Shown: piece after piece, positions 145 to 35,601 of the stretch | How positions within the stretch are numbered: the first letter of the stretch is position 1 | How the letters are laid out: every line of letters begins with the position of its first letter | Program-made: the position numbers and the translations under genes | From: a virus | Virus record (IMG/VR): IMGVR_UViG_3300031823_000018 | Coordinates: 1-38,113 of that record | DNA length: 38,113 bases | Direction: 5' to 3' (one strand) | The notes under the pieces: model-generated | Databases searched by the model: none | Told to the model about the DNA's origin: nothing | Seen by the model: the letters and a program-made list of their open reading frames with translations, nothing else

Positions 145-1734
145 TCAAGCTCCAGTGATGTTGTTGATGATGCCGATAGCGAACGGGGTATGGACGGCCA
201 GCACTTCCTGGCTGTAGACCCCAAAGTAAATCGTGCGCTGAACGCGCGGCCAAACTTCCATGTATGTATCCATGCGCGCTGAGACGATGGCGGGAGATGG
301 CAACGCATTCGTTGTATACCAAATTGGTAACCGCTCCGCCCAGCCCAGCACAGTGCCCGGGGGCATGTAAGGGTGGGCCGCCACTTTGACCTTGCAGCCG
401 CCATCGGCGTTGTAAGGGTTGAACAGCCACGCGATGACACCTTGCGGAGTCACACTGACATCGACACTGGCGTCGCCCAACAGGGGAGCGGTCGACGATG
501 TCACGGCGATATTGGCCATTGCCCGCACCCCGCTGGTGCTGGCGTAAAGCACCGTTGGTGAGAGGAAGTTACTGAGCCACATCGTCTTGAACATGTTATC
601 GACCTCGGCAATGGCGCCGTCGTTGCCAACAGTCAGCCCTGCCCCACTGGCCAGTGTGTTGACGTAGGCGCCTGATCCAGATTTCAGCCCCCAAGTCAGC
701 AACCCATCGTATGCCAAGGCGGTATTGGTCGAGCAGTTGGCCGTGATGGCACTGGCCGATTGGGCACCAGCCGTGAGCGGCGCCGAGAAAGTGGCGCTAT
801 TGGCCCCGGTAATGGCCTGTAGGGTCTCGGCACCGGCCGCGCCCACATACCAGGCATAAGCACTGGCCCCAGGCAGGACAGGGGTCGTAGCGGTCAAATT
901 TTGACCCGAAGTCAGCGATTGCGTGGCGTTCAGGCTCTTGTTGCCCGAGCCCATGTTCAGGACGAAGGTTTGGCCGTCGTTGCCGGTGATGTTCAACGCC
1001 TGACTGACCCCGCCCGCCAGCGAGCTGTTGGCGTAGCCTTCGGCGGTCAGCCCGACCACAATCACCGAGTAGGTTGCCGTACCCAGCGTGCCGAGCGAGC
1101 CGGTCGCCGTCACCGTCGGCGCTGTCGGCACACCGATCGGTAGGGAGCGGTTGCCCCCCAACAGCGCCATCTCCTGCTTGGCGAACAAGCGCAGCATGGT
1201 GCGGAGCTGGATCAGCGCCGCTTCATCCTCGAAGCCATCGGCGGCGATCAGGGCTTCCTCGGTGACGCTGTCTTCCTCCCCCAAGGTGGCGAAATTGAGC
1301 GTGGTGGACGACGTGCTGTAGCTCATGCTGGCGGCGCGCCGGCCTTCCGGCACCCAGCCGATCGCGGCCGGCCCCGAGCCGGTGGTCGAGTTGACCGTCT
1401 TGAAATAGTAGGCGTCGCCGGGGAATTGGGTCTGAATGCGGCGGACCGAATTGCGGATGGGAGTCACTGTCGGGAAGATGTTCAACGCCGGCGCCCGCAG
1501 GTCATAGTAGGCCAGGCCGGCGGCCATGGTGACATTCTTGCGCAAAGGCGCCTCGGCCAGGTCGATCGGCGCGATCGGGCGCTTACCGGCCTGCTTGAAC
1601 GCATCGAGAGTGGCGGCGGCGCGCTCGCGGGTCATGAAGCCGCGCCGGTGGGGATCTGGCGGCCCCATGCCATTGATGGCATCGCACACCACATCAATGA
1701 CCGAGTCACGGGGCAGTGGCACGGAATTGTACAT
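145..1734 (-). CDS. Major-capsid-type protein, paralogue 1 (529 aa)
   Basis: Likely capsid subunit, assembled with the portal and prohead protease encoded to the right. The N-terminal part carries the block RKNVTMAAGLAYYDLRAPAL, shared almost unchanged with the 545-aa paralogue at 2659-4296. The two proteins also match in the segments around WVPEG.R.ASMSY and EEDS.xEEA, and in the C-terminus YSQEVLAVxxPFAIGI.NNI. Residues about 195-330 are a Thr/Ser/Gly/Ala-rich beta domain of Ig-like character, probably an insertion that projects from the capsid surface. The start at 1734 has a good GAGGAG site nine bases upstream. Copy A of the intergenic element lies immediately 5'. The capsid call rests on size, paralogy and position next to the protease/scaffold gene; no HK97 signature was verified. 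Confidence 0.75.
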   Translation of the reverse strand: MYNSVPLPRDSVIDVVCDAINGMGPPDPHRRGFMTRERAAATLDAFKQAGKRPIAPIDLAEAPLRKNVTMAAGLAYYDLRAPALNIFPTVTPIRNSVRRIQTQFPGDAYYFKTVNSTTGSGPAAIGWVPEGRRAASMSYSTSSTTLNFATLGEEDSVTEEALIAADGFEDEAALIQLRTMLRLFAKQEMALLGGNRSLPIGVPTAPTVTATGSLGTLGTATYSVIVVGLTAEGYANSSLAGGVSQALNITGNDGQTFVLNMGSGNKSLNATQSLTSGQNLTATTPVLPGASAYAWYVGAAGAETLQAITGANSATFSAPLTAGAQSASAITANCSTNTALAYDGLLTWGLKSGSGAYVNTLASGAGLTVGNDGAIAEVDNMFKTMWLSNFLSPTVLYASTSGVRAMANIAVTSSTAPLLGDASVDVSVTPQGVIAWLFNPYNADGGCKVKVAAHPYMPPGTVLGWAERLPIWYTTNALPSPAIVSARMDTYMEVWPRVQRTIYFGVYSQEVLAVHTPFAIGIINNITGA

Positions 1735-1752: not shown

Positions 1753-1845
1753 CGTATAGTATAAATGCCGGCAGTGATGTCGGTAGCGGGAGCGGCCATC
1801 AATCAGCTGAAACCCAGATCACCCGTGCCGCCCCCGCACTTCCTC
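1753..1845. repeat. Structured intergenic element, copy A
   Basis: First of four copies (others at 2335, 17256 and 32977). Read on the plus strand it contains a TATA-like tract (CGTATAG at 1753-1759) and a short hairpin, 1768-1773 with 1778-1783. Then comes a long hairpin whose arms are 1786-1796 and 1827-1837 (GCGGGAGCGGC with GCCGCCCCCGC, one A.C mismatch), closing a loop of exactly 30 nt that contains TGAAACCCA. It fills the divergent gap between the capsid gene (minus strand) and the 70-aa gene (plus strand), so its active strand cannot be decided from position. The minus strand read-out places TATACT/CTATACG 5' of the capsid gene. Confidence 0.8.
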
Positions 1846-1864
1846 ACACCACTAGGAGACGCCA

Positions 1865-2077
1865 ATGCCAACCATCAAAGTCCAACTGCCGCTGGTCAGC
1901 AGTGACCCCAACGCTTTGCCCTTGGTCTACGCGCGCGGGCGCGAGAACATGACCGAGCAGGAAATCCCCACCGCCGCCTATGTAGCCCTGAAAGGCAAAG
2001 TGAAGGGCTACTTCAAAGGCGAGTGGCTGCGCGGCACCTGGCGCATCGGCGCGCCCGTGGCTGACGAGCCGTGGTGA
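1865..2077 (+). CDS. Small conserved-looking phage protein (70 aa)
   Basis: One of the few rightward genes in the structural region. The start at 1865 is supported by AGGAG eight bases upstream. The protein begins MPTIKVQLPLVSSDPNALPL and ends with a basic/aromatic segment KGKVKGYFKGEWLRGTWRIG. The ending resembles, loosely, the FRIGEPVP segment of the 108-aa protein at 16841-17167, which also follows a copy of the intergenic element; a common fold is possible but unproven. Its stop codon abuts the stop of the convergent membrane-protein gene with no gap. No function recognised. Confidence 0.7.
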   Translation: MPTIKVQLPLVSSDPNALPLVYARGRENMTEQEIPTAAYVALKGKVKGYFKGEWLRGTWRIGAPVADEPW

Positions 2078-2281
2078 TCAGCGCAGCAAGGGCGCGTGCC
2101 AGCCCATGCTCATGCCGGTGAGCGGCAAGAACATATCGAGGATCACCAGCAGCAGGATCAGCAGGAACACCACAAGAATTATTTGTTTGAAGGGCTGCGG
2201 GATCGGCAGCAAATTGAGAATATACCAAACCACCCCTGCCACAAGACACAAGACCAACAAATAAATTAAAAGACCGATCAT
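2078..2281 (-). CDS. Small hydrophobic membrane protein (67 aa)
   Basis: Two predicted membrane helices make up most of the protein: about residues 2-20 (IGLLIYLLVLCLVAGVVWYI) and about 28-50 (IILVVFLLILLLVILDMFL). A short C-terminal tail follows. The pattern resembles the small two-helix membrane proteins (Thr1/DUF-type or holin-like) often found in phages, but nothing identifies it as a holin. The start at 2281 has GGGAG upstream; a longer upstream reading (from 2317) lacks a better ribosome site. Copy B of the intergenic element lies 54 bases 5' on the same strand. Confidence 0.7.
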   Translation of the reverse strand: MIGLLIYLLVLCLVAGVVWYILNLLPIPQPFKQIILVVFLLILLLVILDMFLPLTGMSMGWHAPLLR

Positions 2282-2334
2282 AGCATGAACTCCCGCTGAG
2301 TGCGCCGTGAGCGTCACGGCCCGCCGGGCCTTGT

Positions 2335-2427
2335 CGTATAGTACTGATACCGGCAGCGATGCCGGTAGCGGGGGCGGCCACGCGCCGGTTGAAACCCATT
2401 AGTGAGCTGCCGCCCCCGCGCCTTCCA
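2335..2427. repeat. Structured intergenic element, copy B
   Basis: Closest relative of copy A. CGTATAG lies at 2335-2341. The small hairpin is perfect here (2349-2355 with 2360-2366, loop GCGA). The large stem is a perfect 11-bp duplex, 2368-2378 with 2409-2419; the A.C mismatch of copy A is a G-C pair here. The loop is again exactly 30 nt and carries TGAAACCCA. It lies between the end of the second capsid gene and the 67-aa membrane-protein gene. Neither strand shows a T-run after the stem, so it is not a standard intrinsic terminator. Confidence 0.8.
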
Positions 2428-2658: not shown

Positions 2659-4296
2659 TTAGCTGTTCGAGATATTGTTCAAGATCCCGATCGCAAACGG
2701 GGCATACACCGCCAGGACTTCCTGACTGTAAATCCCGTAGTATTGCGACCGCGAGACCTTAGGCCACACCTCGGCATAGTAGTCTTGTCGGGTTTGTACC
2801 GCGGCCACTTCCGGCACCGCGTTCGACACATACCAAGGCGGCAGATTCTCAGCCCAGGTCAAGATCGTGCCTGGCGCCAAGTTCGGGTGGATGTTGATCG
2901 GGATGCGCACCCCGCCATCCGGGGTGAACGGATTGTAGTAGAAGGCGACCACCCCTGCCGCAGTGGCGCGATATTCGACGCCGCCGGCGGCATCCGTCTC
3001 GGTCACGAAGCGCAGCAACGGGCTGCTGGCGCCATTCATCACGCGCTTAGTCAGGTTCAGCAATTCCTGACTGTTCACGTACATCACCGTGGGCGAGATC
3101 AGACTTTTGTTCCACATAGCCTGGAACATCGTGTCGATCTCGTTGACTGACCCCATACCCGAGCTGGTCAGCGGGGTGCCGACGCCAACTGGGCCCGTGG
3201 CGAAGGTATTGACGTAAGCACCACTGGTAGTCAGGAACCCCCAGGTGAGCAAACCGTCAAAGGCGTAATTGGTATTGGTCGAGCAGTTGGCCGTGATGGC
3301 ACTGGCCGATTGGTTTGTGGTGGTCAGAGCCGAGGTAAAGGTGACGCTGTTCAGCGTGGTGATGGTTTGCAGCGTCTCCGAGCCCGCCGGCGTGCTCGCA
3401 TACCAAGCGTAGGCCACCGCGCCGTTGACCGCGGGCACGGAGAGCGTCAGGTTTTGCGTGCTGGTCACGATCTGAGTCTGCGCAGCCGACTTGTTCGACG
3501 ACCCGCCATTGACCACATAGGTCTTGCCGTCGTTGCCGGTGACTGTCAGCGCCGCGGCCACACCGTTCGCCACTGACGAGTTCAAGAACCCTTCCTGGGT
3601 CAACGCCACCACATAGGCCGAGTAGGTGCCTGCCGCCACCGTGCTGGTGGTGCCACCGGCACCGGTGACAATAGTGCCGGGTGTGGCCAAGGCCAGCGAA
3701 CGATCGCCGCCCAGCAGGCCCGCCTCTTCTTTGATGAAGGTGCGCAGGAGCAGGCGGAGCTGCACCAAAGCGTCTTCATCCTCGAAGCCCTCGGCAGCAA
3801 AGCGCGCCTCCTCGGACAGACTGTCTTCCTCGCCGATGGTCATGTAACTCAGCGAGTTGTTGGTGGTGACATAGCTCATGCTGGCCGAGCGTTGGCCCTC
3901 AGGCACCCACCCCATGAACGGCTGACCGGAGCCGACCGTGCTGGTGATGGTTTTCCAGTGCGCGCTGTCACCCGGATGCTGCCGTTGCAGACGCGGCAGG
4001 GTGTTGCGCAGCGGCGTCACCGTGGGGAACAGATTCAACGCCGGCGCCCGCAGATCGTAGTAGGTCAGGCCGGAGCTGATGGTGACATTCTTTTTCAATG
4101 TCTCATCGTTCAGCTCGCCCGGAGACATCGGGTTGCCGAAGGCGACCTTGAAAAAGTCGAGGGTTTGCTCAGCCTGATCATGGCTGAGAAACCGGGCACG
4201 GCTGGGCTTGTCGCTGTCAGTACCGTTGATCGCCATCATCAATTTGGCAATCGCCGGCTCCCGCGACTTCTGCACGGGGGCAAGTTTGTTTTCCAC
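2659..4296 (-). CDS. Major-capsid-type protein, paralogue 2 (545 aa)
   Basis: Full-length paralogue of the 529-aa protein at 145-1734. It has the same block order: KKNVTISSGLTYYDLRAPAL, the WVPEGQRSASMSY segment, EEDSLSEEA, a Ser/Thr/Gly-rich beta domain (about residues 205-335), and the ending YSQEVLAVYAPFAIGILNNI. It lies directly downstream of the prohead protease/scaffold gene, the usual place of the major capsid gene, so this copy is the more likely principal subunit. I chose the GTG at 4296 because AGAGGAG sits eight bases upstream; the GTG at 4305 overlaps that site. Having two full-length capsid paralogues is unusual. Possible roles are a hexamer/pentamer division of labour, as in T4 gp23/gp24, or a decoration subunit. 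Confidence 0.8.
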   Translation of the reverse strand: MENKLAPVQKSREPAIAKLMMAINGTDSDKPSRARFLSHDQAEQTLDFFKVAFGNPMSPGELNDETLKKNVTISSGLTYYDLRAPALNLFPTVTPLRNTLPRLQRQHPGDSAHWKTITSTVGSGQPFMGWVPEGQRSASMSYVTTNNSLSYMTIGEEDSLSEEARFAAEGFEDEDALVQLRLLLRTFIKEEAGLLGGDRSLALATPGTIVTGAGGTTSTVAAGTYSAYVVALTQEGFLNSSVANGVAAALTVTGNDGKTYVVNGGSSNKSAAQTQIVTSTQNLTLSVPAVNGAVAYAWYASTPAGSETLQTITTLNSVTFTSALTTTNQSASAITANCSTNTNYAFDGLLTWGFLTTSGAYVNTFATGPVGVGTPLTSSGMGSVNEIDTMFQAMWNKSLISPTVMYVNSQELLNLTKRVMNGASSPLLRFVTETDAAGGVEYRATAAGVVAFYYNPFTPDGGVRIPINIHPNLAPGTILTWAENLPPWYVSNAVPEVAAVQTRQDYYAEVWPKVSRSQYYGIYSQEVLAVYAPFAIGILNNISNS

Positions 4297-4340
4297 GAAG
4301 AGCACTCCTCTACGGCAGTTGCGACGAAAGGGGAAAAGCC

Positions 4341-11113: not shown

Positions 11114-14100
11114 TTATTCTTCAGTGTCGTCGGCACCCGCGTCTGGACCGTCCTCGCTGGGCTCACCAGTGTCAGGATCAATCACAGCTATTTCAATATC
11201 ACAACGGCAATTTGGATGCGCCGGGACCGTATCGTCTCCCGAGTCAAACGCATCGTCGAGATTGATCCAATCCTGATCGACATTCGGCTGACAAATTTCT
11301 CGGCACGGGTCGTCACCGACCCACCGCTTTTGCAGTTCTAAATCGTATTGATCTGCGGTGGCTTTGTAGCCTTCCAAAGCCCCGCCACCGCGCGCAAACG
11401 CCGCTTCAGTACGAGCGACCGTCAATGCGCGCGCTGCCGAGAAAGGATAGGCCAGTTCGCCAGTGTCAGCCATAAGGCCAGTTTGGATCTGGGCGGCGGT
11501 CATACCAGTGCTGATTGCCTCACCCAACCCCTCACGTAACATGGTTCGAGTGGTCTCGTCTATACGCATAGTTGCGCGGGCGGCCGGGACCAGTTTGCCC
11601 CGTGCGTTATAACGCATGCCGATCAGCTCAGCTGAGCGGGCGCGCGCTGCAGCGGCCACCCGTTGATCGACGGTATCGAAGATGTCCCGGCTGCCGCCAC
11701 CCTCGCCACCTTTGCCCGCCGCCAGCATCACCGCCCGCACCGCCGACTGGCCGGCCAGGGTGCCGATCCGGCCGAGCACCGGCTCCAACGTGACGATGGT
11801 ATGCAGCTCGTCCTGAATTTTGACGCTGGCCATGAGGCTGGCAGCTTGCTGCTGCGGCGCTGGATCAGCCTTGCCCAGGTGGGTGCCGACCGCCTGCACC
11901 ACGGCGTGCCGCAAACGGTCGAAGGCGGTCTTGACAACGTCGGCCATGGCCTGAATTTGCGGCTCAGACGGCCACGCTGGATCGCGGTTGACGATGACCC
12001 GCCGGCGCCGTGCCTTGGCCAAGGGGTCATCGGCGCGGAGGCGCGACCAACGCTTCGCCAAGTCGCCAGCACCTTCGCGCACGGTCCACTCTGGCATCAA
12101 GCCGATTTTCTGATCAGCAAAATGCGTGGTCGCGCTCGATGCCGTCCGATTGCTCTCGCCGTACGGACCATAGTTGACCCAGGAATTTTGCCCTCGCGTT
12201 TCCGTGGTCATCGCCCGTGCCGCTTCCGGCGAGAACATCGCCACATGCGACCGCCAGGCGTTTTCCTCACCGTCAGCACGGAAGCCGTTGCCTTCCTTGA
12301 TATGTCCAAAATAGTCATGGACGACGCGGAACACGTCGTTGGCCACCATCGGGTGGCCGTGCATGTCCACTTCCTTGGTCGGCGCCAACAGCGGATTTTT
12401 CGAGACATCAAAGTGGGCATCGCTACCGAACCCCGCTGAAGTCGGGAACACCCACAGGTGATTGTTCTTTTCCACATCCAGGGCGGCCAACCGCGGAGAG
12501 GCGGCATAGGGATCGCCATGCTTGGCATAATCGATGAATTCGACCTTCAGCCCAGTGTCCTTGACCGCCTGATACTGCGCCACGACCTCTTCGATCATCT
12601 TGCCATAAGCCGCCTTGACAACGGGATCGTGGGGCGCGTCTTTCATTCTATCAAATTCGTCTGCAATGCGCGTCGCCCGCACCGGGTCCACCTTCACGTA
12701 CTGGGTCGGCGGGGTATAGGACAGACCGGCTTTTTGCATGTAATCACGCGCAGCTTGGCGCGCGATCGCATTCGGCCCGACGACAATCGGCCCAACGCCT
12801 GGAACTTTTACGTGGCCGGGGAGTCCTTCGAGAGGCTTTTCGCCATGCGCAGAATCGGCAGCACCCGATGACGCCACCCCGCCAGCGCTTCCTGAAACGC
12901 CGCCTCGGTGGGGAAGTTCGCCCGTTGCGGCTCGGGAGGAAGATTGGGAGTCTCCATGGCCATCACTTGTGCTTCCTCCGCCGCCGCCTGTCCACTGTCC
13001 ATGTTCATCGCGCGGCTGATCCGGGTTGAAATCCTTCCTTAAGACTTTTTCGGTTCCGGTTTCCCAGAATCGGGTGGTGCGGTCGACGGTCCAGCCGAGT
13101 CGGGCGGCGTAGGCATCTTCAACGGAGGAGATTTTCGGCCCCAGCTCGGAAACGAGCCGATCGGCCCGCCCTGAAAGATCGGATCGTCCTCTTGTACGAA
13201 GGACCGCCAGATAATTTTGCCCACGCGGACGCTCCTGCCAATCATTGGCAATATAACCAAACTCCGCCTTCGCACGAGTCGCCGTCGCAGACGGCACTCG
13301 AACATCAATCAAGGCGTGCGCCATCTTACCCTGAAAGGTTGCATTGTCCAGTTTCGTATATTCAGGAATGTTCAAAACTCGAAACCCTGTCGCAGTCGTG
13401 ATCGGAGACAGGTCAGCCGAGCCCGTGTGCTCGGTAATGGCAGCGTTGACCCGAACGGCCTCCTCATTGGTCAGCGGGCGCCCGACATTCACATCAATCA
13501 AATTGGCGTCATGGGGCGCCACATGGGCGCCAGCATACACCACGCTATGCCAGGCACTCGCGTCTTGGCGCAGCAGTGCCCCGCGCACGGCTTGCGCGAC
13601 ATCCAGGCGATCCTTCGAGTCCTGCGACAACCTGCCGTCGCCGCCTTTTTCCGTCCGCGCATAGACGATGGCCTGGCTGCTGGGGTTGACATGGCCCTCA
13701 AAGACGCCCGGTCCCGAGACTGTCGGCTTGGTCTCCAAGCCCAGGCGGGTCGCGATCACATCCCGGCCTTGGGCGTCCACAAGCTGGTGTTCAATCGCGT
13801 CGTGGTAAGCTTGCCGCTGCGCCAAGCTGGCGTTGTGAAATTCCGGCAGCGCATGCATAGTCCGGCCGGGCGCCGCCTCCCAACTCAATTGGGTTGAAAA
13901 GCGCGACTTAGGCCCGGCGGAAGCGCCACTTTCTGACCACCGGCCGTGGTCGTCGCGGGGTTGATCCGAATTGAACGCCTTAGTAGCGGCCCCAGTCATG
14001 GGGTCGAAAGGGCTGTCGGCATTGGCCGCACCCCACTTGCTCAGCGTCTTCGGCGCGTGCAAATCGGCCGTGGTCAACCAGTGCTTGAATTCGGCCACCG

Positions 14101-16534
14101 TCATCTGCTGCGGCGGACCCAGCCGGTGGGTTTGCGCCGCGCCATTGTCGTAAGATTGGACATAATCAAGCTGGGCCTCGATCCAATTATCGTAACAAAT
14201 AAAGCACTTATGCTCATCGAAGGCGCCGTCCGCGCCCACCTGATCCATGACAAAAACAATATCGCTATCAGGGTTGGAGCCAATAAACACGTCCATCTGC
14301 TGCTCATCGGCGCCCACGGTGCGGCGGATGTAGCCGTAATGGGTCATCATGGTGCTGGCCCAGTCACCGGTCTTGCCTTGGCGCACCGAGCCGGCGGCGT
14401 TTTCAATGGTAATATCCAAACCCTGCCACTGAAAATGCCCCATGCAGTAATTGCCCGCCTGACGCTGCGGCAAGGTGGGCGCGGGGTGCGCCTGGGCCGC
14501 GGCGGTGTCGATCTCCTCGGCGGTGATCTTGGCCAAGCCGTCTTCATAGACCAGCGGGACTTCCGGGCCGAACAGCAGCAAGCCGGCATAGGGTTCGACG
14601 GAGGGGTCCGCATCCTCGGAGTCATCGCCGGGGAGGGAGTCTTCATCGTCCGGGCCCTCCTTGCCCAGGCTGATGCTCAGCTCGGACGCGAGGAGCCCGC
14701 CCAGCGCCCGCGCGCGCATCTCCAGCGCCGGAGAATGAATGACAAGGTGCCACCCGTCATCGTCTTCGCGCAGCTCGCGCGCGTCGCCCTCCACCACCAG
14801 CAATGGCTGGTCTTCATCCAAGAGGAACGGCAGCCCCATTTGTCCGACAAAACTGGCGATCTCCACTTGCGTGTTGCTGGGCACGTCAAAGCCGTGCTGC
14901 TTGCCCCATTGCTGGAGATCGAAGACGTTGATCAACGGGCGCACCAGCAGACCGGTGCGGGTACCCGCCAGTTTGTTCATCTCCGCGCCCCCGGTCTCGA
15001 CGCCTTGCCCGGCAGCGGCCTGGGCGGGTGCTGTCGACGGTTTGGGTAGCGCAGGCATCCCCGGCTTGCCACTACCGCCGAACGGCTTGGGCGCCCCGCC
15101 TAGGACCGGCTGGCCGGACCCGGCAGCGCCCGGCGCCCCTGCCGTGGCAGCCGGCGCCATCAACCGTGCCTGCACGGCCTGCGCCTGATCCTGGTGCTGC
15201 TGAAAGCTGTTCAGTGGCACGTAGCCGGTCGCCGTGGCGAACATCGGCTCAGCCGCGGCGCCGCCAATCGGATCCAAGCCGACATCGTCGCGCACCTCGT
15301 CAATCGATTCGATGCCCGCGCGCACGTATAAATTGTCGATGGTCGCAGCCTTGATCGGATCGAACTCGCGGTCTTCCTGCCAGGTGAATTCCAGATCCTC
15401 AATACCCAATTCCTCACGGTTGATCTTATTGATCAAGCGCGCGATCCACCGCATGGTCGGTTGCAAGCCCTCGGCCTGCGCTTGCTGCACGCTGGTTTGC
15501 GCGGTCGCTCGATTCATCTGTTTAATAAATGGCTGCGGAGAGATCGAGAAGGCGTAGCAAATCACCTTGGCCAGCCACGCATCGAATTCGTCAAACAGCA
15601 ATTCTTTCTGAAACGGCGTGTACTTGCTGCCTGCCGGCACCCACCACAGGCGCGCCCGCTCCTCGATATTGCCACGGAAGATCGAATCCCAGTGGCCTTG
15701 AACGTCGTTGACCTGCTCTTGCGTGAGGCTGGCCGGTGCTTCCATGACACCACGCGGCACATCACCATACTGATAATATGCCAACTGCTCGCGCACGCGA
15801 CCGATCGACAATTCGACGTAAGCCGCAATTTGCTCCACCGGACCGTAACCGTACATATGGTCGGGGCGTGCGTTCTTGATGGCATAGATCATATCGCCAG
15901 CAGTGTAAGCCGCGTAGTCTGATGCCGGAACGCCCTTCAGCACTTGCTGGTAGGCCACGCTGGGCGGCGCGGGGATGCGACCATCGGCATCGACCTTGAC
16001 GCTGATGGTGGCCGCGTCCAATTGCTCCAATCCATACACTTGGCCGCCGCGCGTGCGGCGCTTGTACAAAGCCACCGCATCATAGACAAAATGCTGCTCC
16101 AACACCGAGCGAATCCACTGCTGCCAATCCAGGCGGCGATCCGGCTTCTCCCAAAACTTGGTCAGCATATCAATCGCATCAGCATTGGCCCTACGCGCTT
16201 GCCGGCGCTTGTCCCCGGCCACCTTAGGCTGGATGTTCCAGCGCAGTGATTCGATCTGATCCTTACGAGTCTCCAGCACCATGCGCAGAATTGGTGACAC
16301 ATGCGACAAGTGCTTCAAACGCGAGAAGGACATTGGCTCCCATGCACGCGGGAGATAATTCAAGTTGAACGCCACCGGGAAATCCCAAAGCCGCCCCTTG
16401 ACCTCGGGGGCCATCGGCTGGAGCGGCTGCATGGGCGACATCCACGTCTGCGGTGTCACCCCCGCGATCGTGTAGCGCACCGCCTGGGTCAGGCGTTGCC
16501 GAAAGCCGGGATTGGGTTTGGGCAGATCAGACAT
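11114..16534 (-). CDS. Portal protein fused to polyvalent domains and a MuF-type head protein (1806 aa)
   Basis: Residues about 1-450 are a phage portal protein (e.g. FEFTWQEDREFD-like C-terminal part; RGVMEAPASLTQEQVNDVQG). About 690-825 match the inorganic-pyrophosphatase-like domain of phage polyvalent proteins (DITIENAAGSVRQGK; HYGYIRRTVGADEQQMDVFI). Linkers at about 855 (FNSDQPRDDHGRW) and 1170 (FNPDQPRDEHGQW) repeat a motif common in phage MuF-type proteins. About 1230-1480 is a conserved phage domain with HDYFGH and ENAWRSH. About 1610-1800 are MuF/SPP1-gp7-like, with the terminal PAHPNCRCDIEIA motif. AAAAAGGG precedes the start. Portal and MuF are normally separate genes; here a single chain links them through enzyme-like domains, which probably enter the cell with the DNA or act in the head (inference). 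Confidence 0.9.
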   Translation of the reverse strand: MSDLPKPNPGFRQRLTQAVRYTIAGVTPQTWMSPMQPLQPMAPEVKGRLWDFPVAFNLNYLPRAWEPMSFSRLKHLSHVSPILRMVLETRKDQIESLRWNIQPKVAGDKRRQARRANADAIDMLTKFWEKPDRRLDWQQWIRSVLEQHFVYDAVALYKRRTRGGQVYGLEQLDAATISVKVDADGRIPAPPSVAYQQVLKGVPASDYAAYTAGDMIYAIKNARPDHMYGYGPVEQIAAYVELSIGRVREQLAYYQYGDVPRGVMEAPASLTQEQVNDVQGHWDSIFRGNIEERARLWWVPAGSKYTPFQKELLFDEFDAWLAKVICYAFSISPQPFIKQMNRATAQTSVQQAQAEGLQPTMRWIARLINKINREELGIEDLEFTWQEDREFDPIKAATIDNLYVRAGIESIDEVRDDVGLDPIGGAAAEPMFATATGYVPLNSFQQHQDQAQAVQARLMAPAATAGAPGAAGSGQPVLGGAPKPFGGSGKPGMPALPKPSTAPAQAAAGQGVETGGAEMNKLAGTRTGLLVRPLINVFDLQQWGKQHGFDVPSNTQVEIASFVGQMGLPFLLDEDQPLLVVEGDARELREDDDGWHLVIHSPALEMRARALGGLLASELSISLGKEGPDDEDSLPGDDSEDADPSVEPYAGLLLFGPEVPLVYEDGLAKITAEEIDTAAAQAHPAPTLPQRQAGNYCMGHFQWQGLDITIENAAGSVRQGKTGDWASTMMTHYGYIRRTVGADEQQMDVFIGSNPDSDIVFVMDQVGADGAFDEHKCFICYDNWIEAQLDYVQSYDNGAAQTHRLGPPQQMTVAEFKHWLTTADLHAPKTLSKWGAANADSPFDPMTGAATKAFNSDQPRDDHGRWSESGASAGPKSRFSTQLSWEAAPGRTMHALPEFHNASLAQRQAYHDAIEHQLVDAQGRDVIATRLGLETKPTVSGPGVFEGHVNPSSQAIVYARTEKGGDGRLSQDSKDRLDVAQAVRGALLRQDASAWHSVVYAGAHVAPHDANLIDVNVGRPLTNEEAVRVNAAITEHTGSADLSPITTATGFRVLNIPEYTKLDNATFQGKMAHALIDVRVPSATATRAKAEFGYIANDWQERPRGQNYLAVLRTRGRSDLSGRADRLVSELGPKISSVEDAYAARLGWTVDRTTRFWETGTEKVLRKDFNPDQPRDEHGQWTGGGGGSTSDGHGDSQSSSRAATGELPHRGGVSGSAGGVASSGAADSAHGEKPLEGLPGHVKVPGVGPIVVGPNAIARQAARDYMQKAGLSYTPPTQYVKVDPVRATRIADEFDRMKDAPHDPVVKAAYGKMIEEVVAQYQAVKDTGLKVEFIDYAKHGDPYAASPRLAALDVEKNNHLWVFPTSAGFGSDAHFDVSKNPLLAPTKEVDMHGHPMVANDVFRVVHDYFGHIKEGNGFRADGEENAWRSHVAMFSPEAARAMTTETRGQNSWVNYGPYGESNRTASSATTHFADQKIGLMPEWTVREGAGDLAKRWSRLRADDPLAKARRRRVIVNRDPAWPSEPQIQAMADVVKTAFDRLRHAVVQAVGTHLGKADPAPQQQAASLMASVKIQDELHTIVTLEPVLGRIGTLAGQSAVRAVMLAAGKGGEGGGSRDIFDTVDQRVAAAARARSAELIGMRYNARGKLVPAARATMRIDETTRTMLREGLGEAISTGMTAAQIQTGLMADTGELAYPFSAARALTVARTEAAFARGGGALEGYKATADQYDLELQKRWVGDDPCREICQPNVDQDWINLDDAFDSGDDTVPAHPNCRCDIEIAVIDPDTGEPSEDGPDAGADDTEE

Positions 16535-16840: not shown

Positions 16841-17167
16841 TCAGCCTTGAATATCGCGCTTCTGGCGCAGCACACGATCGATGTCAGATTGGGTAGGCAT
16901 CTTGGTGAGCGACCGGCGCAGCTCGCGGCGGCGACGGCGTTGGTCCTGCTCCAGGTAAGTCTTCAGCACCACCTCGTAGTCGAGCGGATGCAAGGTAATG
17001 GCGTCGGCGTGGACGATCGGCACCGGCTCACCAATGCGAAACACGCCCAGAAGCTTGCCCTTGGCATAAAGCGCTTGCACGCCCTCAGGAATCTCTGACG
17101 ACTTGCGCACAACCAAACCGTTGATCTCGCGCGGCGCATAGCCCACGGGTTTGCGGGTTTTTTCCAT
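16841..17167 (-). CDS. Hypothetical phage protein (108 aa)
   Basis: First gene of the operon leading to the portal. N-terminal part has the segment VVRKSSEIPEGVQALYAKGK followed by LLGVFRIGEPVPI; the C-terminal part is highly basic and helical (DQRRRRRELRRSLTKM). The middle resembles, weakly, the 70-aa protein at 1865-2077. The start at 17167 (ATG) is reasonable, although its ribosome site is poor. Structured element copy C lies about 90 bases upstream on the same strand. Function unknown. Confidence 0.7.
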   Translation of the reverse strand: MEKTRKPVGYAPREINGLVVRKSSEIPEGVQALYAKGKLLGVFRIGEPVPIVHADAITLHPLDYEVVLKTYLEQDQRRRRRELRRSLTKMPTQSDIDRVLRQKRDIQG

Positions 17168-17255: not shown

Positions 17256-17396
17256 ACTTGAAAGTGAATAAGGCCGACAAGCCGACTGCCAGTATATACA
17301 AATTGCTAGCCTTAAGGGTGGTGGGGAGGCCATGCTCCAGGTGAAACCCAGAAAACCCATGCTTCCCCACCATTCTAAGGTCCGGTCTTCTTTCCA
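17256..17396. repeat. Structured intergenic element, copy C
   Basis: Longer version of the element, shared with copy D over about 140 bases. Plus-strand order: direct repeat GCCGAC-AA-GCCGAC, TATATA at 17293-17298, GCTAGCCTTAAG, then the main stem 17320-17330 with 17361-17371 (GGTGGGGAGGC with GCTTCCCCACC, 11 pairs including one G.U). The stem closes a 30-nt loop with GTGAAACCCA, and a conserved CTTCTTTCC follows. A T-A pair here replaces a C-G pair in the other copies, which supports a real helix. Read on the minus strand, TATACT faces the 108-aa/cold-shock/portal operon. It occupies most of the 266-base gap. Confidence 0.8.
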
Positions 17397-18472: not shown

Positions 18473-18940
18473 TTAAGGCGACGAAGGGAAGAAGTGTTTG
18501 GGTTCCGGCGGCTTCTTCCAACACAATAAGTAATGCTGCTGACACAAGTCGCGGCGGAAGGTCGGCGCATCGCAATACAAGCCGGTCGGCCGCTCCTTGT
18601 TATTCCACAACGGGTAGCGGCAGGTGGCCGAGGGTTGCAGGCGCGTTTGAGTTTCATACAAAGGACGAATGAACCCCAAACCGTCGCGACGCCCTTGTTT
18701 ATTGGCGCGCTCAACGGCAAGCGAACGCTTGGCTTGCCGCTCACGATAGGTTTCCTTCGGTGGGTTGCCAGACTTGATCGGCGATGGGCGAGGGGTGAGG
18801 CGCATCGCACGCACGTGGCGGCGCACGCTCGACATAGTACGATGCACCTGCCGGCCGATCTCACACACCGGGACGCCAGCTTGCCAAAGTGTGCGCACCG
18901 CATCGGTTTGGGCCTGAGTCCAAGTGAAACGGCGATCCAT
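18473..18940 (-). CDS. GcrA-like regulator (155 aa)
   Basis: The N-terminal helix-turn-helix reads FTWTQAQTDAVRTLWQAGVP then EIGRQVHRTMSSVRRHVRAM, the GcrA pattern 'WT.e.v..L..LW.eG.s..eIg..lg.s..aV..k'. The C-terminal half has the Cys-rich segment TCRYPLW, LYCDAP and LCQQHY, matching the GcrA C-terminal 'C.wP.g.....FCg....Yc..H' signature. In alphaproteobacteria GcrA is a sigma70 cofactor that activates promoters carrying CcrM-methylated GANTC. A phage copy could redirect host transcription, and it belongs with the phage beta-class methyltransferase nearby. The start overlaps the upstream stop (TGATG). Confidence 0.8.
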   Translation of the reverse strand: MDRRFTWTQAQTDAVRTLWQAGVPVCEIGRQVHRTMSSVRRHVRAMRLTPRPSPIKSGNPPKETYRERQAKRSLAVERANKQGRRDGLGFIRPLYETQTRLQPSATCRYPLWNNKERPTGLYCDAPTFRRDLCQQHYLLCWKKPPEPKHFFPSSP

Positions 18941-19368
18941 CAGTAAGTCTGGTCTGGAGCAAAACAACGAATATGGGTCTCAACGGTCGATCCATCGGCG
19001 CTGCTTCGCCGAATGATGTAGCCGCTCCACCAAGCGATGCCGCTGCCTGTCGGGTTCATGGTGTGCAGCACCGCCTCTTTCTCCACAGTGTAGTAAACCC
19101 CAGCCTGCGGCTTCTCCTCGGTGATCACCGTCTCCGGATGCAGGAAAGTGACTTCATAGTGATCACCATTGATCCGCCAATTAACCATGCGGCCATCGGC
19201 CAACGAGCAACAGGCGCCCAGATCGCTGGATTGCGAGAGGAACCACCCGCCGTACTCGCGCATTCGCTGCTCTTCCTCACTGCCTGAGGGGGCCGGCGCG
19301 CCATGAGCAGCGGCAAACACAAGCAACGCGCTACCAACGGTCAGGTGAATCAGCGTACGCATGGCCAT
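18940..19368 (-). CDS. Exported protein with signal peptide (142 aa)
   Basis: Residues 1-24 form a classical Sec signal (MRTLIHLTVGSALLVFAAAH, AHGA-like cleavage site). The mature protein has three Cys (ACCSLADGRM, HIRCFAPDQ) and aromatic beta-rich segments (YEVTFLHPETVITEEKP; IAWWSGYIIR). It resembles small periplasmic proteins carrying a 'DLGACCSLADGR' motif found in many alphaproteobacterial genomes and phages; the function is unknown to me. The start at 19368 has GGGAG upstream. It is translationally coupled to the GcrA gene through TGATG. Confidence 0.7.
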   Translation of the reverse strand: MAMRTLIHLTVGSALLVFAAAHGAPAPSGSEEEQRMREYGGWFLSQSSDLGACCSLADGRMVNWRINGDHYEVTFLHPETVITEEKPQAGVYYTVEKEAVLHTMNPTGSGIAWWSGYIIRRSSADGSTVETHIRCFAPDQTY

Positions 19369-21021: not shown

Positions 21022-21074
21022 TCCCCCTCCCCCCACGCTATGCTATGCGAAGGCGACAGCCGCGGAACCGCCCG

Positions 21075-22325
21075 ATGCCCAGCAGTGACTTTCTACACGA
21101 AGCCAGCGAACGCGGCTTCATCCATCAATGCACCGACACCGAAGGGTTGGACGCGGCACTGCGCGCGGGATCGGTTGGCGGCTATATCGGCTTTGATTGC
21201 ACCGCCGACAGCCTCCATGTCGGCAGTCTGGTACAGATCATGCTGCTGCGGCTGATGCAGCGCCACGGGCATCGGCCGGTGGTGCTGATGGGCGGGGGCA
21301 CCACGCGCATCGGCGATCCTTCCGGCAAGGATGAGGCGCGGCAATTGCTGTCCGACGCGCAAATCACCGCCAACATGGCCGGCATTCGCCGCACCTTCGA
21401 TCCCTTCCTGCGCTTCGGCACCGGGCAGGGCGATGCGATGATGGTCAACAATGCCGATTGGCTGGATGGCCTCGGCTACATTCCGCTGCTGCGCGACGTG
21501 GGGGTGCATTTCACCATCAGCCGCATGCTGGGTTTTGAATCCGTGCAGCTTCGCCTGGCGCGTGAGCAGCCGCTGACCTTCCTCGAATTCAATTACATGA
21601 TTTTGCAAGCGTACGATTTTCGCGAACTGTTTCGCCGCCACGGCGCGGTGCTGCAAATGGGTGGCTCCGACCAATGGGGCAACATCGTCTGCGGCATCGA
21701 ACTGGCCCGCCGCACCGACAACGCGGCGCTCTTCGGCCTCACCACGCCGCTGATCACCACCGCATCGGGTGCGAAGATGGGCAAGACCGCGCGTGGTGCG
21801 GTGTGGCTGACGGCGGATCGCACCAGTGCCTATGACTATTGGCAATTCTGGCGCAACACCGAAGACGCCGATGTCGGCCGCTTTTTGCGCCTGTTCACCG
21901 ATTTGCCGCTGGCGGAGGTGGCGCGGCTGGAAGCGCTCGGTGGCGCCGAGATCAACGCGGCGAAGAAAATCCTCGCGACCGAAGCCACCAAGTTGGCGCA
22001 TGGACAACAGGCGGCGGAACAAGCGGCAGCGACGGCGAGCGAGACGTTCGAGGTAGGCAGCATCGCCGCCGATCTGCCAACCATTACCGTGGCGCGCGCC
22101 GAACTGGCCGCCGGCATTCCCGCTTTCCGGCTGTTCGCGCAAGCCGGCTTGGCGGAAAGCGGTGGCGAGGCGCGGCGGTTGATCCGTGGCGGTGGCGCGC
22201 GGGTGAACGATTCGCCGGTGGCGGCTGAAGCGCAGCCGATCACGTTGGCGGATTTGCACGACGGCGCCATCAAACTCTCCGCCGGGCGCAAGCATCATCG
22301 TTTGGTTCGCGTGGCCGGCGAATGA
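21075..22325 (+). CDS. tyrS: Tyrosyl-tRNA synthetase (416 aa, complete)
   Basis: Class I aminoacyl-tRNA synthetase that charges tRNA-Tyr. Visible signatures: the substrate pocket [16 protein letters not shown], in which HVGSL (residues 48-52) is the HIGH motif; [17 protein letters not shown]; the tyrosine-binding region GGSDQWGNI; the KMSKS equivalent GAKMGKT at about 232-238; and a C-terminal S4 domain ([20 protein letters not shown]). Length is normal for the bacterial enzyme. I start at [15 protein letters not shown], in line with alphaproteobacterial homologues; an ATG at 21045 is possible. It is an essential host gene, unexpected in a phage region and probably part of an inserted chromosomal segment. 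Nothing in the frame is broken. Confidence 0.95.
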
Positions 22326-24429: not shown

Positions 24430-24725
24430 TACCGCAGCGACTCCGGGAGCGTGCCATCAATCCCCATCAGGGCAGCAGCGATCGTCTCGCGCTTGGGATC
24501 GTCAGGCAGCAGCCGCAACCATGCGGTCACCAGTTGCGACTTAGTAAGCGCGGTAATGGCCATACGCTGCGCCTCGACCAGCTCGACCAACGCCAAGACC
24601 AGGTGCTCCAACAGCCGGTGATGTTCCTCGCCGGTGGTGGTGACCGGCGCTTGCAACTTCTCCTGGCAGCTGCGCACGCGCAGCGCTAGGGCGGCCAAGG
24701 AGGGCGGGGGTGCGGAGTCGGTCAT
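24429..24725 (-). CDS. Hypothetical helical protein (98 aa)
   Basis: Predicted helical bundle: ALALRVRSCQEKLQAPVTTT, HRLLEHLVLALVELVEAQRM, then KRETIAAALMGIDGTLPESL. Starts at 24725; an upstream GTG/ATG reading to 24779 has no better ribosome site. It is located between DUF3800 and a series of micro-genes. Not recognised. Confidence 0.65.
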   Translation of the reverse strand: MTDSAPPPSLAALALRVRSCQEKLQAPVTTTGEEHHRLLEHLVLALVELVEAQRMAITALTKSQLVTAWLRLLPDDPKRETIAAALMGIDGTLPESLR

Positions 24726-24794
24726 GCGCCTTTCACCGGGATAAATTCGAGCGCGCGTTTGAAAAAGTCGTACCCACAAAAAAGCCTTCTGCTC

Positions 24795-25715
24795 TTACGA
24801 AGCCCTAAGTTTTTCCATTTCACGCATTTTCTTTTGATCTGCTTCTAGCTCGGAAAACTTCGCCTCCACCATTTCGCCATCCCATAGCTCACCTTCGTAA
24901 TCCAGATCGCGGTCAGGTAGCGCCGAGAACAATTCTCGCCATCCTTCAGTTTCCGCCTGGGTGCCACTCTGATTCACGAGATGCTTACGAGTTTGCCACG
25001 CCAATATGTCAGCCGCCTGAAGCAGGTAATAGTGGCGCGCATCACCAAAGCTGATTGCTGCGACGCGACTTGCCATGCGTGGGTCCCGCTTATTGATGTG
25101 CTCAAGCAGCCGCAGCCTAGGCCGAGCGAACTGATAATCCCGGTTAAACACCAGTTCTATGGCGTCGCGCTCCTGGGCTTGATCTAGCCGATCGATGATC
25201 CGCCGCAGGAGTCGTTGAAAGCAGAACTCCTGAGCATCACCAAACGACTTGCGCCTTTGGCTTGAAAGCTTGCGCCATACGTCCGCATCAACCGCCACAC
25301 CGAATCCGATCAGCTGCGAATCCTTAATTGCCCCAATGAACTCGCTCAGAACGCGGTGACCATAGTTTAGTGCCCATTTCTTTTCTCGTCGCGTTCCTTC
25401 CCAATCCTTCATATGTACGGCTGGAATGCCATGACGCATAAGCAAATGGCGCCACCGTTGCTGAAAGCCCCACCACACCTGATCGTGAGCGAGATAACCA
25501 GCGATACACACGAATCTGTGGTCGCCCTGGCTTTCTTTTCCACTATCGTCAAAGAAGGCTTCGATCACGACTCGATACTCCGGACGGATGAGGGCCGACC
25601 GGAACGCAGGACGCCAGCCGGGCGCGCTCATGGTGCGCTCCCGATCATAGCACGAATGGGAACGTGAAGTATAATATCGCCGATCCAAGGCTGGTTGATC
25701 AGAATCGTCGGTCAT
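24795..25715 (-). CDS. DUF3800 domain protein (306 aa)
   Basis: DUF3800 pattern: VVIEAFFDDSGKESQGDHRF with the acidic FFDDSG motif near the domain start, then FVCIAGYLAHDQVWWGFQQR, the mid-protein ELVFNRDYQF, and the late acidic/aromatic pattern GDARHYYLLQAADILAW with 'QAADIlaw'. The fold is RNase-H-like and often considered a nuclease. The GAGGA eight bases before 25715 supports the long form; a start at 25631 would still keep the whole domain. DUF3800 genes are frequent in phages and prophages, commonly as accessory genes next to lysis genes. Anti-defence or defence roles are possible but not shown. Confidence 0.85.
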   Translation of the reverse strand: MTDDSDQPALDRRYYTSRSHSCYDRERTMSAPGWRPAFRSALIRPEYRVVIEAFFDDSGKESQGDHRFVCIAGYLAHDQVWWGFQQRWRHLLMRHGIPAVHMKDWEGTRREKKWALNYGHRVLSEFIGAIKDSQLIGFGVAVDADVWRKLSSQRRKSFGDAQEFCFQRLLRRIIDRLDQAQERDAIELVFNRDYQFARPRLRLLEHINKRDPRMASRVAAISFGDARHYYLLQAADILAWQTRKHLVNQSGTQAETEGWRELFSALPDRDLDYEGELWDGEMVEAKFSELEADQKKMREMEKLRAS

Positions 25716-25726
25716 AAGTGGATCCT

Positions 25727-32976: not shown

Positions 32977-33116
32977 ACTTTAATGTGAATAGGGCTGGCA
33001 AGCTGGCTTCCATTATATACAAACCGCTAGCCTTAAGGCTAGCGGGAAGGCTATTAGCTTCGTGAAAGCCATTAAAGCGCTGCTTCCCCGCCATTTTAGG
33101 GGTCAGACTTCTTTCC
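32977..33116. repeat. Structured intergenic element, copy D
   Basis: Homologous to copy C along its whole length: direct repeat GCTGGC-AA-GCTGGC (GCCGAC twice in copy C), TATATAC, then a perfect 22-base palindrome 33024-33045 (CCGCTAGCC-TTAA-GGCTAGCGG). The main stem is 33042-33051 with 33082-33091 (GCGGGAAGGC with GCTTCCCCGC, same A.C mismatch as copy A, one G.U). It closes a 30-nt loop with GTGAAAGCCA, and CTTCTTTCC ends the element. On the minus strand a perfect TATAAT replaces TATACT of copies A and C. The IS1595 element begins 70 bases to the right. Confidence 0.8.
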
Positions 33117-33285
33117 TTTGACTCCGGTCCTAAAACCGGGTTTTACATCAGTTTTTGTATCGACATCAATGGCGTGCTCTGCCCAAAGCGGACATGTACA
33201 CTTTAGGGCTTGACATCATCTAATAGACCCATTAAGTTACTCCCATGAGCGCGGCAATGGGCCGGCTCCTAATGGGAGACGAAAG

Positions 33286-33558: not shown

Positions 33559-34208
33559 ATGACCGGCATCGTCGAAATCTATCGGCGCTACCCGACCAAA
33601 GAGGACTGCATCGCGCATCTCGAAAAGGTGCGCTGGAATGACAAGCCGCTCTGCCCCTACTGCGGGGCAGAGCGCGTCTCGCGCCATCGTGAGGCGCTGC
33701 GGGATGACCGATGGCAATGTCAGCGGTGCGAGCGCTCTTTCTCGGTCACGGTCGGGACCATCTTCCATCAAACGCACGTCGATTTGCAGCGCTGGTTTCT
33801 GCTGATCTCGCTCATGCTGTCGGCCAAGAAAGGGTTGTCTGCGATGCAGGCCGCGCGTGACCTGGAGATGCGTCGCCCGACCGTGTGGAGTATGATGCAT
33901 CGCATCCGCAAGGCGCTCGCTGATGACGGCAAGCTCCTGGCCGGCATCGTTGCGATGGACGAAACCTATGTCGCAGGCAAACCTCGCAAGCGCAACCGGC
34001 GCAGCGACGATCCGCTCTACGGCTCGACGCACACCAACACGATCGACGGGACTTTTGGGCGCTGGTGAAGCGCGCGATCTACGGCCAGTTCCACCATGTC
34101 AGCCGGAAGTACCTGCCGCTGTACCTGGACGAGATCACTTGGCGCTTCAATCAGCGCAGCAACCCCGGCGCCTTCGACCATGCGCTGCATGTTGCGGTCA
34201 AGCCCTAA
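33559..34208 (+). pseudogene. IS1595-family transposase, internal deletion and frameshift
   Basis: N-terminal zinc-ribbon (CPYCGAERVSRHREALRDDR ... QCQRCERSFSV) and the helix-turn-helix-like MLSAKKGLSAMQAARDLEMR are intact, as is the first catalytic Asp in IVAMDETYVAGKPRKRN. After DDPLYGS the next segment of the family (about 80-90 residues including the second catalytic Asp) is missing. The sequence resumes at THTNTID. A one-base loss in TTTT then shifts the frame: the C-terminus WALVKRAIYGQFHHVSRKYL to the TAA at 34206-34208 is readable only in another frame. Inactive. Confidence 0.85.
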
Positions 34209-34493: not shown

Positions 34494-35066
34494 TTATAAC
34501 CTTGTGTCGCTTCCTGTCACCCGGATCACCCGATTATTGGTGGTGGGGGCATCAAGAGGAGTGATTGATTCACGCCAGCCGGCGCGCATTTTCAGCCAGG
34601 AAAAGGTCGCCGCCGGGAATTCTCCTGAGCAAGCCAGGGCATGTGCGGTCTCCGCCACCTGGCATACCGCCTCAAGATGGCCGACATCCAGCTCGGTGCG
34701 GTAATAATGCACCAAAGTGTTGTGATTGGTACCCAGCAGCTTGGCGATGTCAGTCTCCGAAAGACCAAAGCCGGCCAATGCGCGCACGCATCGCCGCAAG
34801 GCGCGGGTCGGGGCCTCGCCGCGGGGATCGATCTCACCCTGCTCGACGCCGTCCAGTAATGCCCGCATCTGCTTGGTAATCGGGTGGCGGGCTAGGGGTT
34901 CGATCGGCGTTCCTTCCAAGGCGACCACCGCTTGGCTGTCAGAAATAGGCAAAACTTGCTTGCGCAGGCGCCTGCGCGCACGGAGTTTGTCCGGGAACGG
35001 CAACACCGAGCCAGGCGGCGAGACGTGCAAGACATGACGGTCGGGAGGATCGGGAGGATCAGCCAT
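34494..35066 (-). CDS. Terminase small subunit-like protein (190 aa)
   Basis: Central helix-turn-helix GLSETDIAKLLGTNHNTLVH and the segment following it (YRTELDVGHLEAVCQVAETA; ATFSWLKMRAGWRES) match the pattern of phage small terminases that bind pac DNA. The N-terminal third is basic and probably disordered. The ATG at 35066 overlaps the NusG-like gene by eight bases; a longer upstream reading lies inside that gene and is unlikely. It recognises viral DNA and hands it to TerL, which lies 2.5 kb downstream beyond the IS and the hairpin-rich region. Confidence 0.75.
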   Translation of the reverse strand: MADPPDPPDRHVLHVSPPGSVLPFPDKLRARRRLRKQVLPISDSQAVVALEGTPIEPLARHPITKQMRALLDGVEQGEIDPRGEAPTRALRRCVRALAGFGLSETDIAKLLGTNHNTLVHYYRTELDVGHLEAVCQVAETAHALACSGEFPAATFSWLKMRAGWRESITPLDAPTTNNRVIRVTGSDTRL

Positions 35067-35601
35067 GAGGAATTTCGACCGCGCGGGGCCGCGGCACCAA
35101 CTGTTGCGGGGGAAGGGTGACCAGGCGTTGTCCACCCAACACGTCGAGCAGGATGGTCACGCGCTCTTTGGCACTGTGGACACACAAGCCGCTGGCGCCG
35201 TGAAACAAGCCGCCGGTGATCTGGGTGGTATCACCCGGCTCGAAGCGGCGCGGGCGATTGTCGAACTGCTCGTAAGGGCCGGCCTCGGCGCGAAGCTGCT
35301 CGACGTAGCCTCGTGGCAGCGGTAGCGGGGTCTCGGCATCACAACCCATCAGCCGGGAGACGCCAACGGTAGTATGAATGCGGCGCCAGGCTAAATCCAA
35401 AATGTCGAATGATATAAACAGGTAGCGTGGGAACAAGGCGTTGATGAGGGTCTTTTGGGTGCGCCGCGACTGTTCCAACACGACCGGATAGAAAACAATA
35501 AATTTTTCGTGCAGCAGGGCTTTCTTCGCCAGGGTCTCCTGGTGATAATTGCTTTGGACACAGTACCAGGTCTGGGGATCATTCAGTAAAACATCAGACA
35601 T
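35059..35601 (-). CDS. NusG/RfaH-like transcription elongation factor (180 aa)
   Basis: N-terminal NGN domain: TWYCVQSNYHQETLAKKALL, FYPVVLEQSRR, LINALFPRYLFISFD, HTTVGVSRLMGCD. The C-terminal KOW domain: RRFEPGDTTQITGGLFHGAS then LLDVLGGQRLVTLPPQQLVP. This is the pattern of specialised NusG paralogues (RfaH, LoaP, ActX), which bind RNA polymerase and a nucleic-acid element and suppress termination in long operons. As the first gene of the leftward late region, coupled to TerS, it is well placed to drive late read-through. The intergenic structured elements are candidate recruitment sites. Confidence 0.85.
   Translation of the reverse strand: MSDVLLNDPQTWYCVQSNYHQETLAKKALLHEKFIVFYPVVLEQSRRTQKTLINALFPRYLFISFDILDLAWRRIHTTVGVSRLMGCDAETPLPLPRGYVEQLRAEAGPYEQFDNRPRRFEPGDTTQITGGLFHGASGLCVHSAKERVTILLDVLGGQRLVTLPPQQLVPRPRAVEIPHG

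What the first reader, a model, noticed from the sequence alone, without database searches (positions are those of the whole stretch)
1753..2427. Four-copy structured intergenic element: copies A and B and the family definition
Seen in sequence: copies at 1753, 2335, 17256 and 32977, all in the same orientation, have a GC stem of 10-11 pairs closing a loop of exactly 30 nt with TGAAA(C/G)CCA at its centre, preceded by a second hairpin and a TATA-like tract. Stem positions covary: T-A in C against C-G elsewhere, G-C in B where A and D have the same A.C mismatch. No copy has a T-run, so they are not plain terminators. Each lies 5' of a leftward structural gene set. It looks like an undescribed phage RNA or protein-binding element.
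Basis: seen in the sequence. Interest (0 to 1): 0.85.

Follow-up and report, generated by a model that had tools for sequence, protein, structure and literature searches.

The report
Four scattered dual-guide RNA genes
The four hairpins are guide-RNA genes of the recently described TIGR-Tas family, each with two 9-letter guide segments for pairing with DNA, and unusually they are scattered singly along a bacterial virus genome rather than packed into an array.

Summary
All four copies are stem-loop tigRNA units of TIGR-Tas systems (Faure et al. 2025, PMC12045711). The '30-nt loop' is box C (CA/UA), a 9-nt spacer, the loop repeat UGAAANCCA (box D + box C), a second 9-nt spacer, and U.

A pattern from the copies hit many viral contigs where the same hairpin stands in arrays beside a Tas (Nop-domain) gene, always on the Tas strand (15 of 15). 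These proteins match solved TasR and TasH by sequence (E 1.6e-51, 1.2e-21) and fold. Stems covary (0.893 against 0.17 shuffled). Within arrays, stems are about 95% identical while spacers are at chance (25-30%). A model built without the window's copies recovers all four.

What differs from published loci is layout: single units scattered over 31 kb, with no Tas in this 38-kb fragment. That absence is weak evidence: another Tas-less fragment proved 99.5% identical to a virus that has Tas. No target was found in 397 presumed-host-family genomes, nor above chance in IMG/VR. Two guides have near-matches 45 bp apart in one of the phage's own genes (0 of 1500 shuffles): suggestive only.

The parts
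1786..1837 (+). Copy A, stem-loop tigRNA unit: 11-pair stem (one A.C), box C CA 1797-1798, spacer A TCAATCAGC 1799-1807, loop repeat TGAAACCCA 1808-1816, spacer B GATCACCCG 1817-1825
   Evidence: R1 E 5e-10; R2, built without window copies, E 1.9e-8
1755..1785 (+). Leader of A: TATAGTATAAA tract and second hairpin (1766-1785)
   Evidence: fold; 82% identical to the leader of B. Promoter role inferred; no sigma-70 match
1865..2077 (+). Small rightward ORF (70 aa) with AGGAG just upstream, downstream of A on the same strand
   Evidence: read in the sequence; no PHROG match
2368..2419 (+). Copy B, stem-loop tigRNA unit: perfect 11-pair stem, spacer A CGCGCCGGT 2381-2389, loop repeat 2390-2398, spacer B TTAGTGAGC 2399-2407
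   Evidence: R1 E 5e-11; R2 E 3e-10
2337..2367 (+). Leader of B: TATAGTA tract and second hairpin (2348-2367)
17321..17370 (+). Copy C, stem-loop tigRNA unit: spacer A TGCTCCAGG 17333-17341, loop repeat 17342-17350, spacer B GAAAACCCA 17351-17359; stem can extend to about 20 pairs
   Evidence: R1 E 4e-10; R2 E 5e-9; extended stem
17293..17320 (+). Leader of C: TATATACAAA tract, weak second hairpin
   Evidence: 84% identical to D over 31 nt
33042..33091 (+). Copy D, stem-loop tigRNA unit (box C is UA): spacer A TTAGCTTCG 33054-33062, loop repeat TGAAAGCCA 33063-33071, spacer B TTAAAGCGC 33072-33080
   Evidence: R1 E 2e-6; R2 E 0.008, the weakest copy
33014..33045 (+). Leader of D: TATATACAAA tract and second hairpin 33024-33045, which overlaps the 5' arm of the unit by a few nt
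33123..33144 (+). Intrinsic-terminator-like hairpin plus TTTT downstream of D
16902..16920 (-). Near-match (16/18, 1-nt gap) to the target expected for guide B, inside ORF 16841-17167(-)
   Evidence: lead only
16947..16964 (+). Near-match (15/18, no gap) to the target expected for guide C, inside the same ORF
   Evidence: lead only

Best explanation
Each copy is a stem-loop tigRNA gene, a dual-guide RNA of the TIGR-Tas kind. It is probably transcribed rightwards as a short RNA (TATA-like leader, leader hairpin, guide unit; D also has a terminator). By analogy with the solved complexes, a dimer of a nuclease-less Nop-domain protein (TasA) would hold it by its two box C (CCA/CUA) and two box D (UG) motifs and expose two 9-nt spacers, one pairing with each strand of an 18-20 bp DNA target. 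Without a nuclease domain the outcome would be binding and bending of DNA (blocking transcription or replication of a rival element, or regulating the phage's own DNA) rather than cutting. Shown here: unit anatomy, covariation, homology with Tas-linked units, strand, hypervariable spacers. Inferred: transcription, Tas binding, DNA targeting, biological role. The Tas gene is not in this fragment; most likely it lies in the missing part of the genome.
For: Box C - N9 - UG - linker - CCA - N9 - UG inside a palindromic stem is the published stem-loop TIGR unit. Same unit in arrays beside Tas in 15 stem-loop loci, always on the Tas strand. Tas confirmed by profile, by PDB sequence match to TasR and TasH and by fold. 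Covariation 0.893 against 0.172. Stems 95% and spacers 25-30% identical within arrays; A and B share leader and stem but 11% of spacer positions. Model without window copies finds all four. Same core in 36-nt dual-repeat TIGR arrays. Dispersed units also in G012, which has Tas.
Against: No Tas in the 38 kb. No target found. No expression data. D is a weak match to the independent model (E 0.008). The units used for the covariation count had been filtered for a stem.
Confidence: 0.88

Rival explanations
1. True orphan tigRNAs: the virus has no Tas of its own, and its dispersed guides load into a Tas made by a host prophage or a co-infecting virus, redirecting or competing for it, much as phage-borne mini-CRISPR arrays or solitary repeats do.
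For: No Tas in the window; G009 (73 kb, 6 units) and G013 (37.6 kb, 9 units) also lack it; Tas with stem-loop units exists in the presumed host family, 3 of 338 genomes.
Against: The window is cut at both ends. G007 looked like an orphan but is a fragment of a virus that has Tas. Tas is rare in the host family.
Confidence: 0.12
2. Cis-acting leader RNA read by the phage's NusG paralogue (35059-35601), in the manner of RfaH/ops or LoaP, controlling read-through into the neighbouring operons.
For: A NusG paralogue is present (PF02357, phrog_6386); copies A and B contain CGGTAGCG, which resembles the ops core recalled from memory; two hairpins in a leader recall LoaP sites.
Against: The units face away from the structural genes and only a 70-aa ORF follows A on its strand. 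C and D lack the ops-like word. Most Tas-bearing loci with the unit have no NusG paralogue. It does not explain hypervariable 9-nt segments of fixed length.
Confidence: 0.03
3. A DNA element: an inverted-repeat operator or a mobile-element end that acts as DNA.
For: The stems are inverted repeats; an IS1595-type transposase lies near D (33559-34068); -10-like sequences can be read leftwards as well.
Against: G.U exceeds A.C on the guide strand (52 to 21) and units share the Tas strand in every locus. Stem sequence is free to vary, unlike an operator or IS end. A, B and C have no transposase nearby. No Rfam match.
Confidence: 0.02

Closest known systems
TIGR-Tas stem-loop arrays (TasA type), Faure et al., Science 2025 (PMC12045711)
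   Same: Palindromic stem, box C and box D twice, two short spacers, conserved loop repeat, phage setting, neighbouring TasA in homologous loci
   Different: Here single units are dispersed over 31 kb with their own leaders instead of standing in tandem, and no Tas is in the fragment
TIGR dual-repeat arrays with 36-nt tigRNAs (same paper)
   Same: Loop repeat UGAAANCCA and 9+9 nt spacers are the same as in L026, L029, L033, L038
   Different: Edge repeats are replaced by a variable 9-11 pair stem; no 36-nt period
IS110 bridge RNA and box C/D snoRNA
   Same: Bipartite guides read by a Nop-type domain; snoRNAs are also dispersed single genes
   Different: No IS110 transposase, k-turn, L7Ae or fibrillarin in the window; one loop only, no donor loop

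Membership tests
TIGR-Tas stem-loop tigRNA | Palindromic stem of variable sequence enclosing the unit | tested here: met
   9-11 pairs in all four; covariation in homologues
TIGR-Tas stem-loop tigRNA | Box C (CCA) and box D (UG), each twice, in fixed positions | tested here: met
   All four; D has CUA for the first CCA
TIGR-Tas stem-loop tigRNA | Two spacers of 8-12 nt, hypervariable between units | tested here: met
   9+9 nt in all; A/B share 11% and C/D 39% of spacer positions against 94% and 83% of stem positions
TIGR-Tas stem-loop tigRNA | Tandem array of units | tested here: not met
   Single units at 1.8, 2.4, 17.3 and 33.0 kb; arrays only in homologous loci, and dispersed units with Tas in G012. 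So the claim is that these are units of this kind, not a canonical array
TIGR-Tas stem-loop tigRNA | Adjacent tas gene with Nop domain | tested here: inconclusive
   None in the 38-kb fragment, which is cut at both ends; present in 15 homologous stem-loop loci
TIGR-Tas stem-loop tigRNA | Transcribed, processed and bound by Tas; guides DNA targeting | not testable with these tools
   needs RNA sequencing, pull-down and binding assays
NusG-paralogue (RfaH/LoaP) leader element | Element lies in the leader of the operon it controls, on the same strand | tested here: not met
   Units are on the strand opposite to the structural genes
Rfam families | Score above the curated threshold | tested here: not met
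   No match in the window; no hit over the units of L005-L008 even at E 5
IS110 bridge RNA | Adjacent IS110 recombinase | tested here: not met
   The Tas profile, which also reaches IS110 proteins in the PDB, finds nothing in the window

The most novel reading that the evidence does not exclude
A phage lineage that carries only scattered, individually expressed tigRNAs and no Tas, and uses in trans the Tas of a host prophage or co-infecting virus: viral guides that reprogram another element's RNA-guided DNA-binding protein, possibly aimed at a gene (homologues of ORF 16841-17167) shared among related phages.
Probability: 0.12. Interest if true: 0.88.

Novelty: new variant of a known kind. Interest (0 to 1): 0.62.

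Why it matters
TIGR-Tas was described in 2025; its natural targets, spacer origin and biological role are unknown, and the nuclease-less stem-loop branch is the least understood. This work adds a compact covariance model (48 positions) that finds single units which array-based searches could miss. It shows that stem-loop tigRNAs occur as dispersed intergenic genes in several viruses. It catches one unit whose two spacers are both replaced between closely related viruses. It also points to cultured phages (Rhizobium phage RHph_X2_25, Mycobacterium phage Rich, Gordonia phage Morrissey) in which the function can be tested by deletion.

Tried and rejected
Rfam, tRNA and near DNA matches in cultured phages: nothing. 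Self-targeting as a general rule: no excess of the expected A/rc(B) geometry over control geometries in held loci. Exact targets in IMG/VR: guide A, one virus in three contigs; B and D, none; C, two contigs, of which L132 was read and is an AT-rich virus without a homologous gene (L133 not read); all at chance level. Presumed host family: no exact target for any guide in 397 genomes. Prophages related by TerL have no convincing units and no Tas. A weak Tas-like ORF in G013 is an arginine-rich, probably wrong-frame artefact. Relatives by the head protease: none. Cultured-phage homologues of ORF 16841-17167: none. A link with the NusG paralogue was considered and dropped.

Full report
WHAT IS THERE. 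Four copies of a hairpin with TGAAASCCA at the loop centre lie at 1786-1837, 2368-2419, 17321-17370 and 33042-33091, all on the + strand. The nonamer is expected 0.53 times and never reached four in 100 shuffles. The loop is exactly 30 nt in each copy and the stems differ by paired changes. All four fold better than dinucleotide shuffles on the + strand (z -2.5 to -2.8).

HOW IT WAS IDENTIFIED. The spacing GGCYA-N9-TGAAANCCA-N9-TGC is constant in all four. Scanning IMG/VR with it gave four contigs; in three of them the same hairpin occurs more than once in a row. A slightly shorter pattern gave over a hundred stretches, partly chance matches. The convincing ones fall into two kinds. One has long variable stems around the 30-nt loop. 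The other has the same core at 36-nt period with TGCGAGCCA between units and no stem. The second kind is the published TIGR dual-repeat array (Faure et al. 2025, PMC12045711). [quoted passage not shown] The '30-nt loop' therefore reads: CA (box C), 9-nt spacer A, UGAAANCCA (box D, linker, box C), 9-nt spacer B, U(G) (box D).

THE PROTEIN. A protein encoded next to the L005 units found relatives in 43 loci by iterative profile search, including 15 loci with stem-loop units. In all 15 the units are on the Tas strand, which fixes the RNA strand independently of folding. The alignment of these proteins matches solved TasR (9mty, E 1.6e-51) and TasH (21kl, E 1.2e-21). An AlphaFold model of the L008 protein has TasR and TasH chains as its five best structural matches, followed by IS110 recombinases. 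The confident part of that model, residues 125-362, is helical throughout, so it looks like a nuclease-less TasA.

COVARIATION AND HYPERVARIABLE SPACERS. On 52 units, 97% of stem cells pair, 8 of 9 pairs show compensatory change, and the covariation score is 0.893 against 0.172 in shuffles and 0.11-0.17 when the pairing is slid. The units had been filtered for a stem, so this number is inflated; the two-peaked distribution of stem scores before filtering and the linkage to Tas are the unbiased support. G.U and U.G pairs outnumber A.C and C.A 52 to 21 on the named strand. In L035, 25 units of two stem types have 95-96% identical stems within a type but spacers at 27-30% identity, which is chance; L055 and L094 behave alike. 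In the window, A and B share leader (82%) and stem (94%) but only 11% of spacer positions. G007 and G012 are 99.5% identical over 16 kb; within a roughly 500-bp more divergent end segment one unit keeps its stem while both spacers are replaced. This is the behaviour of guides.

INDEPENDENT RECOVERY AND SPECIFICITY. A model built without window or L008 copies (R2) recovers all four at E 3e-10, 5e-9, 2e-8 and 0.008. Its training units were found with a pattern taken from the window, so it is not wholly independent in the loop. The full model finds no convincing hit in 1.48 Mb of loci around related terminases in bacterial genomes (best E 0.02). D is the weakest copy (UA for CA, one mismatch), but it shares its leader with C (79% over 62 nt).

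LAYOUT. The window copies are single, dispersed units. A and B share a leader of TATAGTA plus hairpin; C and D share TATATACAAA plus a hairpin that is clear in D and weak in C; D has a terminator about 33 nt downstream. No sigma-70 consensus promoter was found at the leaders, so transcription from them is inferred. A lies just before a ribosome-binding site and a small rightward ORF. In G012 (76.7 kb) units are also spread from 5.6 to 36.7 kb, several between a stop codon and the next ribosome-binding site and with a short hairpin just upstream, and that virus has Tas at 25.0-26.0 kb. So dispersed tigRNA genes are a real layout and not peculiar to this window; the published description stresses regular arrays.

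IS TAS MISSING? No Tas is detectable in the window. Open frames run off both ends and I recognised no tail module, so the fragment is probably incomplete. G007 looked like an orphan too until G012 showed the rest of the same virus. G009 (73 kb, 6 units) and G013 (37.6 kb, 9 units) remain without Tas. In that family 3 of 338 genomes have Tas, with stem-loop units nearby. A Tas supplied in trans is therefore possible but unproven.

TARGETS. From the published cleavage pattern I derived that one target strand should read spacer A, 0-2 nt, then the reverse complement of spacer B. Exact targets: none in 397 genomes of the presumed host family for any guide, and chance-level hits in IMG/VR. Held loci show no excess of this geometry over controls. 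One curiosity: guide B (16/18) and guide C (15/18) both have near-matches, 45 bp apart, in ORF 16841-17167 of the same phage; none of 1500 shuffles of the four guides gave any such pair within 100 bp. Read in frame, the C site differs from its guide by two silent changes and one Tyr/His change, as if the guide fitted a diverged homologue. This was noticed after looking, so it is a lead only.

VERDICT. Stem-loop tigRNA genes of the TIGR-Tas kind, dispersed as single units: a known kind in a variant layout. The identity is well supported; the function is inferred from the family.

Noticed in passing
L142 24251-26022 (MW960032.1, Rhizobium phage RHph_X2_25): A cultured, probably temperate phage has a Tas-like gene (24663-25718, annotated hypothetical) flanked on both sides by stem-loop units, between its repressor and an XRE regulator.
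   Followed up: partly
L144 and L145 (Mycobacterium phage Rich gp50; Gordonia phage Morrissey gp42): Hypothetical proteins that match Tas, with stem-loop units whose loop repeat starts CGAAACCCA; Morrissey has two in tandem just upstream of gp42.
   Followed up: partly
L035 5968-9711 (-): An array of about 26 units that alternates two fixed stems (ACGGTCGC and GAGCCCGGC) around a Tas gene; why two stem types alternate is unexplained.
   Followed up: no
window 145-1734 and 2659-4305 (-): Two diverged paralogues of phrog_13692, probably major capsid proteins, lie almost side by side.
   Followed up: no
window 21045-22325 (+): A complete tyrosyl-tRNA synthetase in the phage, 75% identical to an Acetobacteraceae copy, on the strand opposite to its neighbours.
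   Followed up: partly
window 35059-35601 (-); L228 5488-6042 (-): NusG-paralogue antiterminators in two viruses that carry tigRNA units; probably coincidence.
   Followed up: partly
window 11114-16534 (-): An 1806-aa ORF that joins a portal domain, domains matching several unrelated phage families (including antirestriction and endolysin families) and a head-morphogenesis domain.
   Followed up: no
window 18473-18967 (-): A GcrA-like cell-cycle regulator encoded by the phage.
   Followed up: no
G012:C1:15741 and G007:C1:16680: Same-locus unit in two closely related viruses: stem kept, both spacers replaced, flanks about 10-15% diverged.
   Followed up: yes
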